Source of the DNA: Hyphomicrobiales bacterium
GTDB taxonomy: Bacteria > Pseudomonadota > Alphaproteobacteria > Rhizobiales > Aestuariivirgaceae
Assembly: GCA_025359045.1 (NCBI GenBank)
Contig: JANYHN010000062.1
Location: 62,001-126,000 of the forward strand
Length of the DNA: 64,000 nucleotides
Direction: 5' to 3'
The notes beneath the pieces are model-generated. The model searched no databases. It saw only the letters and a program-made list of their open reading frames with translations, and was not told where the DNA came from. The translations under genes were made by a program, and so were the position numbers. Shown here piece by piece: positions 48,870 through 52,458 of the stretch (within the stretch, counting starts at the first letter, position 1; every line of letters starts with the position of its first letter).

Positions 48870-49342
48870 AGGAATTCTCCAATTAAAACAAACATCCAGC
48901 CTTCCTCCAGGGGTGAACGACGCTGAATGTTGGCCAGCCTTTAGGGGAATTGAGGGTGGATGGCAAGTTTGGGCCGAATTTCAATAAGTTATGATTTTTT
49001 TCGATTTTATAGGATTTTTAGCTTGACACCGTACGGTGAAGCTGCTAGAGCTGGTCATACTCCACAAATGGGTCAGCATTTTGGAGCCTTCTCATTTTCA
49101 ACAATAGTCTTGAGCCCATCAGGAAGACGACGTTGGAGTTGGGAAATTAATTAAAAAATAATTAGCAATCTGTTTTAAATTACAAAAGTATAAATTGAGC
49201 GAGCTGTCAACGTAACTCCACCGTAACCCCGACCACCACATCAATGTAATCCAAAGGTCAGGTTATTTTGCCGCCTTTAACCTGGGTTGACCTTCCACAG
49301 ATTTGATGACACACAGAATATCGGATAAAGGGGCAGATTCTT
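48870..49342. other. Gene-free region upstream of rplY with an orphan operator-like palindrome
   Basis: This 473-bp, AT-rich stretch has no convincing gene. At 49027-49038 it holds the perfect palindrome CACCGTACGGTG, overlapped by TTGACA (49023-49028), which looks like a TetR-operator-covered promoter facing right with a poor -10. No gene follows it directly. On the minus strand, about 49015-49150, a short frame (QLQRRLPDGLKTIVENEKAP) ends in stops and could be a gene remnant. Confidence 0.4.
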
Positions 49343-50615
49343 ATGACATCTGAAGTGTGTTTGATGAATCGTCGTGCCGCTGTTTTGGCAGCCGATAGTG
49401 CTGTTACGATTCAGCACTGGGACCAACGTCAAGGCAAATATGTTGAGCGATATTTTAAGGGCGCAAACAAAATATTTCAGCTCTCGGCGCATCACCCTGT
49501 TGGGATGATGATCTTCGATTCTGCTGATATTTTAAGAGTTCCGTGGGAAATAATTGCAAAGGATTTTAGGCAGCAACTGGAGGCTAAGTCTTTCAACACG
49601 TTGGAAGAGTATGTAGATGAGTTTTTTGAGTTTTTGGCCAGTGGCCTACGCTACTTTCCAGAAGATATTCAAAATGATACCCTGATAAGTGTTTCTGAAA
49701 ACGCCGCTTTGAACTTCCTGCATAACAATCGTGGCCCAGACGATGAGACTGATGCGGAACGATTAGTTCGGTTGAATAATGCAATTGCGTCGAAGAATGC
49801 AGAACTTGATATGCTTCCATTTATCGGTGGTTTAAGTCTAGAAATGCAAAATGCAGCGATAACAAACCTAACTGACAGGTTAATTGCGACAGTCAAAGAT
49901 ACGATCAAATTGATCGAAACACATCCACAACACATCCCAGAGGGTCTTGCACAAGTAGGTCTAAAAGAGGTCTTTAAGCGTCCGGAAAATTGGTTGGCTA
50001 AAACTGGATTAGTATTTGCGGGTTTCGGCGATCATGACGTATTCCCAAAATGCATCGAATACAACTCTTATGGAATAATAAGTTCGCGCCATATCGCTGT
50101 CGAAGGAGAAAAAGACGTAATCAATCACATGCTACCGGCCTCCATTCGAGGATTTGCCCAAACGTCAATGATAGATACATTCACTATCGGTTTGAGTGAG
50201 GATGTCTTTTATCGCTTCGCAGGCGCGGAACGGTCTTTCAGAATTTGCAACCGAAATTATCACTGCTAGCGGTGGCAACCCAAGTATGATTCTAAGCTTA
50301 GATGATCTTATTGATCGGCGGCAAAAGAACATAACCTCTTTTATTTTGGAAAAAGCCCGCGAGGAACATGGAGCTCCGCTGAGGAGAGTTTTGGGCTCCC
50401 TATCGATAGATGAAATGTGCGAATTGGCGGAGACTTTGATTACACTTCAGTCACTTAAAGAAAAGGTGACTAAGCCCTCCGCTAGCGTAGGAGGTCCAAT
50501 AGATATAGCAGCCATTACGAGGGGCGAAGGATTGATATGGATAAAACGAAAACACTACTTTGACCCAGAGCTGAATCCACGCTATGTTTATCGGACTGTG
50601 CAAAAGCCAACTTAA
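49343..50615 (+). pseudogene. Proteasome beta-like Ntn-hydrolase homologue, frameshifted
   Basis: The first frame (49343-50269) starts M-T-S-E-V-C-L-M-N and continues RRAAVLAADSAVTI, so Met removal would expose Thr1 with Asp at mature position 17, as in proteasome-type Ntn hydrolases; GANKIFQLS supplies a possible catalytic Lys. The C-terminal part (LSEFATEIITASGG to HYFDPELNPRYVYRT) lies in another frame from about 50205 to the TAA at 50615. Removing one T from the run TTTT at 50207-50210 joins them into one protein of about 423 residues. AAAGGGG precedes the ATG. It is not Anbu or HslV. The break could be mutation, sequencing error or slippage. Confidence 0.68.
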
Positions 50616-50630
50616 TCAATGGGAAATAGT

Positions 50631-50828
50631 ATGAGCCAAAAACGCAGTGAATTTGTGCGTACTTCTGCCGAAAAAGATAGCCGTGATTCGACGCCAAGTG
50701 ATGAAATAGCAAAGACCGAAAATCGTCAAGCAGACAGCAAGCGCCTTTATCGAGAAGCTATTGAAGCGTTGAACCGTGCTAGTGATCGCGAGATCGACGG
50801 TTTATTGGCCGGCATATATAATGGATAG
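50631..50828 (+). CDS. Small charged protein downstream of the proteasome-like gene
   Basis: The ATG at 50631 follows GGGAAATAGT and lies 15 bp after the stop of the proteasome-like gene; an ATG at 50619 is also in frame. The 65-residue product is hydrophilic and mostly helical (RLYREAIEALNRASDREIDG), with a flexible Ser/Asp/Thr-rich first half. I recognise no family. It is probably co-transcribed with the upstream gene and could be a partner or substrate. Confidence 0.55.
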   Translation: MSQKRSEFVRTSAEKDSRDSTPSDEIAKTENRQADSKRLYREAIEALNRASDREIDGLLAGIYNG

Positions 50829-50893
50829 TTTTCGATTTTTAATTGCGGCGTTGCGATGCCGATGTAGTTAGTTATAAATTACGGATATGGGAC

Positions 50894-51052
50894 TACGGTG
50901 ACACCCCGAATTACGGTGACACCCCACTTATATTACGGTGATAGTCCAGCACTGTCATCGCAATCTCACGATTTCAATTTCGTCACCTATCTATTTTCAT
51001 GATCAAGCACGGCTGTGTGAAAGTCACCAAGATCGGATTACGGTGACACCCC
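50894..51052 (+). repeat. Cluster of TACGGTGACACCCC repeats
   Basis: TACGGTGACACCCC occurs at 50894, 50912 and 51039, with a degenerate copy (TACGGTGATAGTCC) at 50934. The flanks also agree in part (ATTACGG...ACTTA). They resemble small REP sequences or protein-binding iterons. No gene lies within this gap. Confidence 0.65.
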
Positions 51053-51338
51053 ACTTAATTATTAATATTCCCCCCGCGTATTAGGCCCCTCACCCTCCCA
51101 TGTCGCAAGTGGGCCATGGGCCCTTTCCGGCTGCTGCGCAGCGCTCGCAAGAACTCGCCCCTCTCCCCGACGGAGCGAGGGAAAAATAACTCACAAACTG
51201 CGCAACTGAACTGACGCTAAAACTTAAGTCTGTCACAGTTAGGAATGGGTCTAAAGTCGAACCATCCATTACCCAAAAAAGCGAACCCTGCAAACATGAC
51301 GCTGATTATCAATTCTTGTGAAGATTAAACCTTGGAAG
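51047..51338 (+). repeat. Long direct repeat, copy 1, with a truncated lyase start
   Basis: This segment matches 52172-52458 over about 290 bp, with several small differences. Shared blocks include GTATTAGGCCCCTCACCC, GACGCTAAAACTTAAGTCTG and AAAAAAGCGAACCCTGCAAA. It contains an REP-like GC-rich palindrome region and ends with ATGACGCTGATT..., the first ten codons of the downstream lyase gene with a TAA at codon 11. The vapBC-type genes lie between the two copies. Confidence 0.8.
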
Positions 51339-51430
51339 GAAAACTGTATGCTTCTCTTTAAATAAGACGCATTGACATCTGGGGCGCCAAATTATATTGA
51401 AAGTCGTACTTTCTAACTATTGGAAACATC

Positions 51431-51709
51431 ATGACCCTCGTAAAACTCAAAGAAAAAGGCCAAGTCACCATTCCCGCTGCGGTGCGGGAACAGATTTCTG
51501 CCCACAAGGGGGATGTTTTTGAGGTTGGCGTGACGAATGGCAACATTGTTTTAAAACCGCAAGACATTGTAGCCCGCAAACCTAAGGCTGCGGTGCGGTC
51601 GAAAAAAGGCGTGGATATTTCTACATGGATTGGCTCTGGGAAAGGATTGTTCCAGTCTCCTGAAGAGGCCGCCGATTTTATCAAATCAGAACGTGCTTCA
51701 TGGGGTTGA
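51431..51709 (+). CDS. AbrB/SpoVT-type antitoxin
   Basis: The 92-residue product begins TLVKLKEKGQVTIPAAVREQ, the swapped-hairpin AbrB/MazE DNA-binding domain, and ends with an acidic and basic tail that should wrap the toxin. Its last codons overlap the PIN gene start by 10 bp. It is the antitoxin of a VapBC-type module and likely represses its own operon. Confidence 0.9.
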   Translation: MTLVKLKEKGQVTIPAAVREQISAHKGDVFEVGVTNGNIVLKPQDIVARKPKAAVRSKKGVDISTWIGSGKGLFQSPEEAADFIKSERASWG

Positions 51710-52128
51710 GAGACGAACTCAAAGGCAAGCGGGTCTACTTTGATGCAAATATTTTCATTTATTTGATGGAGGGATTTCCCGCCTTTGAGCCAAGTCTGCA
51801 CGAAATACGCGACAGCATCTATCATGGGGAATCCCATATTTGCACCAGTGATTTAACGCTCTGCGAAGTTTTGGTTCCGGCTTTTCGGACAAACAACACC
51901 AAGCTGCTCACGCTTTATCGACGGTTCATAGAGGATAGCGGTGCTTTTGAGCTTATTCCCACGACCCGTGAAATCTATATTCGGGCAAGTTTGCTTCGCG
52001 CTCAACTTGGTCTAAAAACGCCGGATGCCATACATGTTTCAAGTGCTATAGATTTTGGCTGCAATGTATTCTTGACGAATGACAAACTTCTAAAAGCCCC
52101 GAAAAACATGGATATTCTTCATATCTAG
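51700..52128 (+). CDS. PIN-domain toxin (VapC-like)
   Basis: The 142-residue product shows the PIN acidic residues in order: RVYFDANIFIYLM, TLCEVLVP, LKTPDAIHVSSAI and FLTNDK. VapC toxins are Mg-dependent RNases, often cutting tRNA or rRNA. It overlaps the AbrB-type antitoxin gene, the usual arrangement. The pair lies between two direct repeats, a sign of recent insertion. Confidence 0.92.
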   Translation: MGLRDELKGKRVYFDANIFIYLMEGFPAFEPSLHEIRDSIYHGESHICTSDLTLCEVLVPAFRTNNTKLLTLYRRFIEDSGAFELIPTTREIYIRASLLRAQLGLKTPDAIHVSSAIDFGCNVFLTNDKLLKAPKNMDILHI

Positions 52129-52159
52129 GTTACTCTACAGAATTACCGTGTCTCACTTA

Positions 52160-52178
52160 TGGGGTGCAGTCCACCCCA
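52160..52178 (+). terminator. Hairpin after the PIN toxin gene
   Basis: TGGGGTG (52160-52166) pairs with CACCCCA (52172-52178) around a five-base loop, followed by TTTAATTAT. It is a fair terminator for the toxin-antitoxin operon. Confidence 0.5.
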
Positions 52179-52458
52179 TTTAATTATCAATATTCCTAGC
52201 CCGTATTAGGCCCCTCACCCTCCCATGCTTCGCATGGGCTCTTTCCGGCTGCTGAGCAGCGATAGCAAGAACTCGCCCCTCTTCCCAACGCGGCGAGGGA
52301 AAAGTAACTCACACTCTGCGCCACTAAATTGACGCTAAAACTTAAGTCTGTCACACTTGAACACTGGTCAGAGACTGAACCCATCAATTCACCCAAAAAA
52401 GCGAACCCTGCAAACATGACGCTGACTATTAATTCTCGTGAAGACTTAACCTTGGAAG
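52172..52458 (+). repeat. Long direct repeat, copy 2, running into the lyase gene
   Basis: This is the second copy of the segment at 51047-51338, offset by 1120-1125 bp. It contains the upstream region and the first 14 codons of the lyase gene and is intact at that start, whereas copy 1 has a stop. An REP-like GC-rich block with hairpins fills 52205-52305. Confidence 0.8.

What the first reader, a model, noticed from the sequence alone, without database searches (positions are those of the whole stretch)
49343..50828. A second proteasome-like Ntn-hydrolase family, broken by a single-base frameshift, with a small partner gene
Seen: the N-terminus M-T-S-E-V...VLAADSAVT puts Thr1 and Asp17 exactly where proteasome beta subunits have them, and a Lys follows in ANKIF. 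The C-terminal third is in another frame, and dropping one T from TTTT at 50207-50210 joins the two into about 423 residues. A 65-residue charged protein follows. The product is about 1.7 times the length of Anbu, lacks similarity to HslV and sits in an accessory region. Inference: an undescribed self-compartmentalising or signalling Ntn hydrolase, possibly with the small protein as partner.
Basis: partly seen in the sequence, partly recalled or inferred. Interest (0 to 1): 0.78.

Follow-up and report, generated by a model that had tools for sequence, protein, structure and literature searches.

The report
Broken proteasome-like gene with small partner
This bacterium carries a disrupted copy of a little-studied, mobile relative of the proteasome that elsewhere is intact, usually followed by a tiny partner gene, and often carried by phages, phage satellites and plasmids, which makes it a candidate for an anti-virus defence that could now be tested.

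Summary
Window 49343-50269 and 50196-50615 are two reading frames of one gene: both match the same phage-protein family, PHROG 5990. A model of an intact relative has a proteasome-type fold. The Thr/Asp/Lys catalytic set is present in 101 of 101 intact relatives. The family is not undescribed: size, insertion sites and host range fit 'PMI-4' of Fuchs et al. 2021 (PMC8665760), though I could not compare sequences. What looks new is the context. A 30-90-residue ORF follows directly in 115 of 126 non-redundant copies (control 248 of 637). It shows coding selection, and no third gene is widely shared. The pair occurs in streptococcal phage satellites, prophage accessory slots, plasmids and, here, a chromosomal interval filled with other genes in the nearest relative. 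Other broken copies break elsewhere, so a programmed frameshift is unlikely. Best reading: an inactivated copy of a two-gene mobile cargo module, probably an anti-phage threonine protease controlled by its small partner. Family, partner and mobility are well supported; defence is inference (about 0.4). Without reads, an assembly error in the window cannot be excluded.

The parts
49343..50269 (+). N-terminal part of the split proteasome-like Ntn hydrolase (Thr2/Asp18 of the ORF, Lys of ANKIF)
   Evidence: ORF of 308 aa; PHROG 5990 positions 1-289, E 7.8e-51; catalytic columns
50196..50615 (+). C-terminal part in another frame; family match from about 50286; conserved block SVGGPIDIAAITRGEGLIWIKRKHYF at about 50484-50561
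   Evidence: ORF of 139 aa; PHROG 5990 positions 324-426, E 1.2e-24; alignment
50207..50285 (+). interval in which the frame change lies (exact base not determined)
   Evidence: end of the frame-1 family match and start of the other-frame match
50631..50828 (+). small charged partner protein, 65 aa (possible upstream start at 50619, 69 aa)
   Evidence: position conserved in 115 of 126 relatives; weak PHROG 12554 match, E 0.0028
49136..52207 (.). variable interval between rplY and an ammonia-lyase-like gene; other genes stand here in the nearest genus-mate (G020)

Best explanation
The window holds a disrupted copy of a two-gene mobile cargo module. Gene 1 is a roughly 430-residue proteasome-type Ntn hydrolase of the PMI-4 kind. 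Loss of Met1 would expose Thr1, which with Asp17 and Lys33 equivalents forms the active site; two helical insertions sit on the proteasome core (shown: residues and predicted fold of an intact relative; inferred: Met removal and activity). Gene 2, directly downstream and often overlapping, is a fast-evolving small charged protein made together with it (shown: position, coding selection; inferred: interaction). I think it most likely that the pair is an anti-phage system: the partner keeps the threonine protease latent or senses infection, and release of the protease cleaves a host or phage protein and stops phage growth (inferred). In this bacterium the protease frame is broken, so the module is probably inactive, as are some copies elsewhere. 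Confidence by layer: family member with a split frame 0.9 (real break rather than assembly error about 0.7), conserved two-gene unit 0.9, mobile cargo 0.9, anti-phage function 0.4; latent protease with regulatory partner 0.35, given defence.
For: Family: both pieces hit PHROG 5990. Fold: AlphaFold2 of an intact relative, pLDDT 93.3, pTM 0.90; all 50 Foldseek hits listed are proteasome or Anbu chains, the 11 at E 0.001 or better all at probability 1.00. Active site: Thr, Asp and Lys in 101 of 101 intact relatives. Partner: 115 of 126 copies versus 248 of 637 control segments, or 122 of 126 versus 351 of 637 with a wider rule; pN below pS in 40 of 40 closest, non-independent pairs, and small-protein pN above the hydrolase's in 37 of 40. 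Self-contained: the most shared neighbour families (ORFs of 90 aa or more) occur in 10 loci at most and are prophage genes. Mobile: 10 plasmid and 13 phage records, 154 IMG/VR stretches. Slots: accessory end of streptococcal satellites, opposite the integrase, prophage antitermination/lysis region, after the lysin, beside a prophage HTH regulator (family and partner confirmed). Of nine streptococcal satellites with the same upstream regulator, two carry other content in that place. Patchy: only the window's own of 61 genomes, 10 of 398 across the phylum, own included, 22 of 5426 E. coli genomes.
Against: No member has a tested function in what I searched. PADLOC has no model for it: of 103 scanned, at most 3 hit any one model, best E 7.5e-5. 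The nearest genes in chromosomal loci are mixed, with housekeeping genes (RecA, aconitase, CTP synthase) beside a few methyltransferases; only the 25 most frequent families were shown and no control set was scanned, so this is no demonstrated defence island. Wide occurrence in archaea and environmental bacteria also fits a housekeeping or stress role. The overall superposition on solved proteasomes is loose (TM by target 0.41-0.53, rmsd 17.9-20.9 for the 11 best except 6tu3_K at 21.5). A single-chain fold of hydrolase plus partner left the partner mostly below pLDDT 55, so no interface was predicted. The window's own small protein lacks the aromatic-Pro motif of many partners and aligns only marginally with any.
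Confidence: 0.45

Rival explanations
1. A toxin-antitoxin or addiction pair that stabilises mobile elements: the hydrolase harms the host unless the small protein restrains it, with no specific role against phages.
For: Two-gene, tightly coupled layout; plasmid and satellite homes; broken copies; a neighbouring MazE/PIN pair in the window and RelB/RelE annotated beside one satellite copy.
Against: The partner lies downstream, is very variable, and the window's, like the two phage-borne partners scanned, has no DNA-binding family match; many copies are in archaea and environmental bacteria.
Confidence: 0.2
2. A connectase-like protein ligase or processing enzyme whose substrate or tag is the small protein itself.
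For: Same superfamily as connectase, a monomeric ligase with an insertion covering the active site (abstract and results of PMC8665760). The small proteins share an aromatic-aromatic-(0-2)-Pro motif: 54 of 109 versus a mean of 12.3 in 200 shuffles, maximum 20. Near-obligate pairing.
Against: The motif is absent from half the partners, including the window's, and many carriers are related, so the shuffle overstates significance. In the single-chain model the partner was not placed.
Confidence: 0.15
3. A host-fitness or phage-life-cycle protease (protein quality control, lysogeny control) with the small protein as assembly factor.
For: Wide taxonomic spread including archaea, housekeeping neighbours in some chromosomes, one copy inside a phage structural gene block.
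Against: Very patchy presence among close relatives and other genes in the same interval of the nearest one argue against a core role.
Confidence: 0.2
4. For the window copy only: the frame change is an assembly or sequencing error and the gene is intact.
For: Draft 76-contig assembly; neither piece has a stop inside its family match.
Against: The block that reads E-T/S-V-G-G or D-T/S-V-G-G in the 101 intact rows' first column reads A-S-V-G-G here, the only A in that column (99 E, 2 D, 1 A), which hints at relaxed constraint. Other copies are broken too.
Confidence: 0.3
5. Programmed ribosomal frameshift joining the two frames.
For: The two frames overlap without a stop between 50196 and 50269.
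Against: Of 194 loci whose match reaches the C terminus, 179 have both ends in one open frame (four of the 194 are the window and its own re-fetched copies); the other broken copies break elsewhere.
Confidence: 0.03

Closest known systems
PMI-4 (Proteasome homolog with Multiple Insertions 4), Fuchs, Alva and Lupas 2021, PMC8665760
   Same: Proteasome-like core with Thr/Asp/Lys; insertions after the first helix pair and between helices 3 and 4; range of phyla including cyanobacteria, Euryarchaeota and phages (Table 1; loci)
   Different: Window copy is broken. The paper reports no genomic context or co-occurrence pattern suggestive of a specific function, whereas a small downstream gene is nearly universal here. 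Sequence similarity with the PMI-4 set not tested.
PHROG 5990
   Same: Both window pieces match parts of the profile
   Different: Listed as unknown function; no partner named in the entry shown
Anbu
   Same: Proteasome-type fold; among the best structural hits (5nyw, 5nyj)
   Different: Target chains of about 235 residues versus 428; the family adds helical insertions
HslV / 20S proteasome beta
   Same: N-terminal Thr, Asp, Lys set; weak sequence matches of some relatives; top structural hits
   Different: Far longer; below curated Pfam and NCBIfam cut-offs; no widely shared third gene that could be an unfoldase
Connectase
   Same: Proteasome-like fold with insertions (as described in PMC8665760)
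   Different: Connectase insertion lies between strands 3 and 4; here after the first helix pair and before the last long helix
PPH and AAH (other phage-borne proteasome homologs, PMC8665760)
   Same: Carried by phages
   Different: PPH is about 140 residues; PPH and AAH belong to the compact group I without insertions

Membership tests
Proteasome-like (Ntn hydrolase) superfamily | Proteasome beta fold | tested here: met
   Intact relative L050: pLDDT 93.3; all 50 listed Foldseek hits are proteasome or Anbu chains, though with loose overall superposition. The window's own chain was not folded.
Proteasome-like (Ntn hydrolase) superfamily | Thr1, Asp17, Lys33 catalytic set | tested here: met
   101 of 101 intact relatives and the window N piece
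Proteasome-like (Ntn hydrolase) superfamily | Hydrolase or ligase activity after Met removal | not testable with these tools
   No biochemistry
PMI-4 | Insertions after H1/H2 and between H3/H4 | tested here: met
   Helices 101-209 after the first pair and about 287-361 before the last long helix in the model, read against section 3.3 of PMC8665760; placed by eye
PMI-4 | Occurrence in Proteobacteria, Firmicutes, Actinobacteria, Bacteroidetes, PVC, Cyanobacteria, Euryarchaeota and phages | tested here: met
   Record titles and phage hits, against Table 1
PMI-4 | Clusters by sequence with the published PMI-4 set (representative HDY66466.1) | not testable with these tools
Anbu / HslV | Compact length near that of Anbu or HslV, and match to the family models | tested here: not met
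   396-478 aa; no Pfam or NCBIfam match above cut-off for the window pieces or the six full relatives scanned
Known anti-phage defence system | Match to a catalogued defence protein | tested here: not met
   PADLOC: window pieces best E 0.02 and 0.06; of 103 A2 rows at most 3 match any one model, best E 7.5e-5
Anti-phage defence system (function) | Protects cells against phage | not testable with these tools
   Inference from cargo positions only

The most novel reading that the evidence does not exclude
PMI-4-type proteasome homologs are the enzyme half of a widespread, mobile two-gene anti-phage immunity module of bacteria and archaea. The tiny, fast-evolving partner acts as trigger, inhibitor or substrate of an N-terminal-threonine protease or ligase that does not work as a 20S-like barrel; in some rhizobial plasmids it stands near a ubiquitin-like conjugation operon.
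Probability: 0.35. Interest if true: 0.85.

Novelty: new variant of a known kind. Interest (0 to 1): 0.6.

Why it matters
The 2021 survey named 22 proteasome-homolog families and reported no context or co-occurrence clue to their function. A near-universal partner gene and a home in phage satellites, prophage accessory slots and plasmids give one of the larger of these families a concrete, testable hypothesis: proteasome-type proteolysis used in phage-host conflict. It also shows how annotation can miss the partner: in several records the small ORF is unnamed or not called.

Tried and rejected
Rejected: a programmed frameshift (179 of 194 loci reaching the C terminus have both ends in one frame; seven other loci whose matches fall in two segments, L003, L006, L025, L032, L114, L164 and L166, break outside profile positions 284-317 or, for L032, lack a far larger stretch. 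L006 at 320-330 is close to the window's site, and two pairs, L025/L114 and L006/L166, lie near each other). Rejected: an undescribed family (and PMC8665760). Rejected: a widely shared third gene (the most shared neighbour families reach 10 loci).

Led nowhere: Pfam, NCBIfam and PADLOC on the window pieces; the first genome scan with the window piece alone (no relative); a profile search of solved structures (weak: cullin-3 E 0.016 over the helical insertion, proteasome beta E 0.028 over the C-terminal motif); one small-protein profile to link the window's partner to the main clade (E 13); the single-chain fold of L040 hydrolase plus partner; alignment A4 with separate small-protein rows, not used because those rows aligned to the wrong part; defence-gene enrichment of neighbours, not quantified. 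Literature: ten searches, of which 91, 101 and 102 listed only part of their hits, showed me no paper that assigns this family a function. PMC8665760 was read in part (named in the full report); of PMC13022661, PMC10936438, PMC13376191 and PMC6813308 I saw passages only, the rest as listings. The library holds open-licence PMC papers only.

Full report
What is there. The window lies in an unnamed draft genome of 3.18 Mb in 76 contigs. At 49343-50269 there is a 308-residue frame, and at 50196-50615 a 139-residue frame in another register. Searched apart, they match the two ends of one phage-protein family of unknown function, PHROG 5990: positions 1-289 (E 7.8e-51) and 324-426 (E 1.2e-24). The genome-wide family search finds the same two pieces. 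So a single gene is split by a frame change between about 50207 and 50285. I did not determine or undo the responsible base. A small ORF follows: 65 residues from ATG 50631, or 69 from ATG 50619.

What family it is. Pfam, NCBIfam and PADLOC gave no match worth the name to the window pieces; some relatives give sub-threshold matches to proteasome and HslV models over roughly the first 40-60 residues. tblastn with the N piece found relatives in 10 plasmid records and 13 phage records. An alignment of 11 intact proteins from these (A1) then found 468 relatives among species genomes (80 kept) and 154 in viral contigs (80 kept). Those kept score best against a Providencia phage protein, so the set is biased towards intact copies. 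Record titles include Proteobacteria, Firmicutes, Actinobacteria, Bacteroidetes, Planctomycetes, Cyanobacteria, Nitrospirae, Chloroflexi and several archaeal groups. In A2 (101 intact relatives plus the two window pieces), Thr2, Asp18 and Lys37 of the reference are present together in 101 of 101. AlphaFold2 of an intact relative (L050, Oceanirhabdus seepicola) gave pLDDT 93.3 and pTM 0.90. All 50 Foldseek hits listed from the PDB are proteasome or Anbu chains; 11 reach E 0.001, best 1.2e-4, with loose overall superposition (TM by target 0.41-0.53) because the query carries large extra parts. The one viral-library hit at E below 0.001 is named a proteasome beta type-2 subunit of a siphovirus. 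The model has the proteasome strands with helical additions at about 101-209 and 287-361.

Relation to known families. Fuchs, Alva and Lupas 2021 (PMC8665760; I read the abstract, methods, results and discussion with Table 1, not the introduction or supplement) describe 22 proteasome-homolog families. PMI-4 has insertions after helices H1/H2 and between H3/H4, 501 sequences at 90% identity, and a range that includes cyanobacteria, Euryarchaeota and phages. Size, insertion sites and range fit PMI-4 better than any other row, but I could not compare with their sequences. [quoted passage not shown]

The partner gene. From 194 loci whose match reaches the C terminus, 16 without a recognisable start were left out (among them the broken copies, the window and its re-fetched copies, contig-end fragments, and L120, which the filter missed); the rest gave 131 non-redundant open copies: 76 from species genomes, 34 from viral contigs, 21 others. 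Of these, 126 had at least 300 bases downstream, and 115 have an ORF of 30-90 residues starting -25 to +60 bases from the stop. The same test on 637 other long ORF segments in those loci gave 248. A wider rule gave 122 of 126 against 351 of 637. Of the ten copies without a hit under the narrow rule, several have a partner-like ORF that starts further inside the hydrolase gene. The 40 closest pairs of small ORFs all show pN below pS, so they look coding; in 37 of 40 the small protein changes faster than the hydrolase (pairs are not independent, and one ORF choice, L008, is probably wrong). A profile from ten partners reaches 37 of 116 others at E below 0.001. An aromatic-aromatic-(0-2)-Pro motif is in 54 of 109 dereplicated partners against a mean of 12.3 in shuffles, but shared ancestry inflates that. 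The window's own partner lacks it. Its six best-scoring alignments with other partners have shuffle fractions of 0.015-0.11, and that with L003 0.04, uncorrected for the number compared: no similarity is shown, only position.

Where the pair lives. In the five streptococcal satellites opened it stands at the end opposite the integrase; in four it is last, in Javan421 about 3 kb of further accessory genes follow. Of nine streptococcal satellites with the same upstream regulator gene, seven carry the hydrolase and two have different content. It also stands between antitermination and lysis genes of a Providencia phage and an E. coli prophage, beside the holin of a Stenotrophomonas phage, after the lysin of a streptococcal prophage, within a Porphyromonas phage's structural block, beside a prophage HTH regulator in E. 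coli, and on an E. faecium plasmid. Both E. coli copies are full family members with a partner ORF 18-24 bases downstream. The most shared neighbour families (ORFs of 90 aa or more) occur in 10 loci at most and are prophage genes; a ClpP-like family occurs in four. The nearest neighbours of copies in species genomes (131 of 141 collected; those above 700 aa dropped) are mixed. Presence is patchy: only the window's own among 61 genomes with a protein query; 17 of 397 in the order with the profile, 13 of them at E below 1e-6; 10 of 398 in the phylum; none of 14 control genomes; 22 of 5426 E. coli genomes with a DNA query, five of the 12 listed covering 71% of it and seven only 10%.

Window context. 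In the nearest genus-mate (rplY 97% identical; ammonia-lyase-like gene 90%) DNA similarity stops at window 49135 and resumes near 52208, apart from a repeat of the latter stretch at 51037-51338, and the interval holds other genes. The module is therefore in a replaceable interval. The genome has two other matches to PF00227; I take them for HslV and Anbu by match strength and size (recalled, not tested).

Broken copies. Besides the window, two close alphaproteobacterial relatives are damaged: L003 is split in two frames and L010 has stops. Of the 13 order genomes with E below 1e-6, four (the window's, G297, G298, G408) lack a full-length open copy; contig ends were not checked. Breaks in other loci lie at other places. 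Together this favours repeated loss over a programmed event, but an assembly error in the window itself remains possible.

How it most likely works. Shown: catalytic residues, predicted fold of an intact relative, near-obligate coding partner, self-contained two-gene unit, mobile and accessory locations. Inferred: the pair forms a complex; the enzyme is latent until a phage signal reaches the partner; the outcome blocks phage growth. Accessory slots of satellites and prophages often hold defence or exclusion genes (recalled, not from a call), but they also hold toxins, addiction modules and fitness genes, so I put defence at about 0.4. Fuchs et al. write that insertions at these sites could prevent ring assembly, so a barrel protease is not assumed. 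My attempt to place the partner in one chain with the hydrolase gave no ordered partner, and no complex prediction was available.

Noticed in passing
window 51047-51338 and 52172-52458: Direct repeat of about 290 bases (83% identical) bracketing a MazE-like/PIN pair (51431-52128); the first copy includes a remnant of the start of the downstream ammonia-lyase-like gene.
   Followed up: partly
window 50894, 50912, 51039: Three copies of TACGGTGACACCCC within about 160 bases, just after the small ORF; no other copy in the window.
   Followed up: no
L004, L006, L007, L008: Four rhizobial plasmid copies lie within about 5 kb of genes annotated as multiubiquitin-domain and ThiF (E1-like) proteins, three of them also with a gene annotated as Clp protease subunit.
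   Followed up: no
L106, 1882 bases, and L107, 6559 bases downstream of the hydrolase; L007, L008: The same ClpP-like protein family recurs near two environmental MAG copies as well as two rhizobial ones.
   Followed up: no
L122, L126, L128, L130, L136: Small partners of one prophage clade end in a short aromatic motif (FSR, FCW, FSW, FNW), which recalls C-terminal docking tails of proteasome activators (analogy recalled; sequences).
   Followed up: no
G211, G332, G345: Three small-genome members of one genus in the order match only the helical segment 296-375 of the family weakly; perhaps coiled-coil noise.
   Followed up: no
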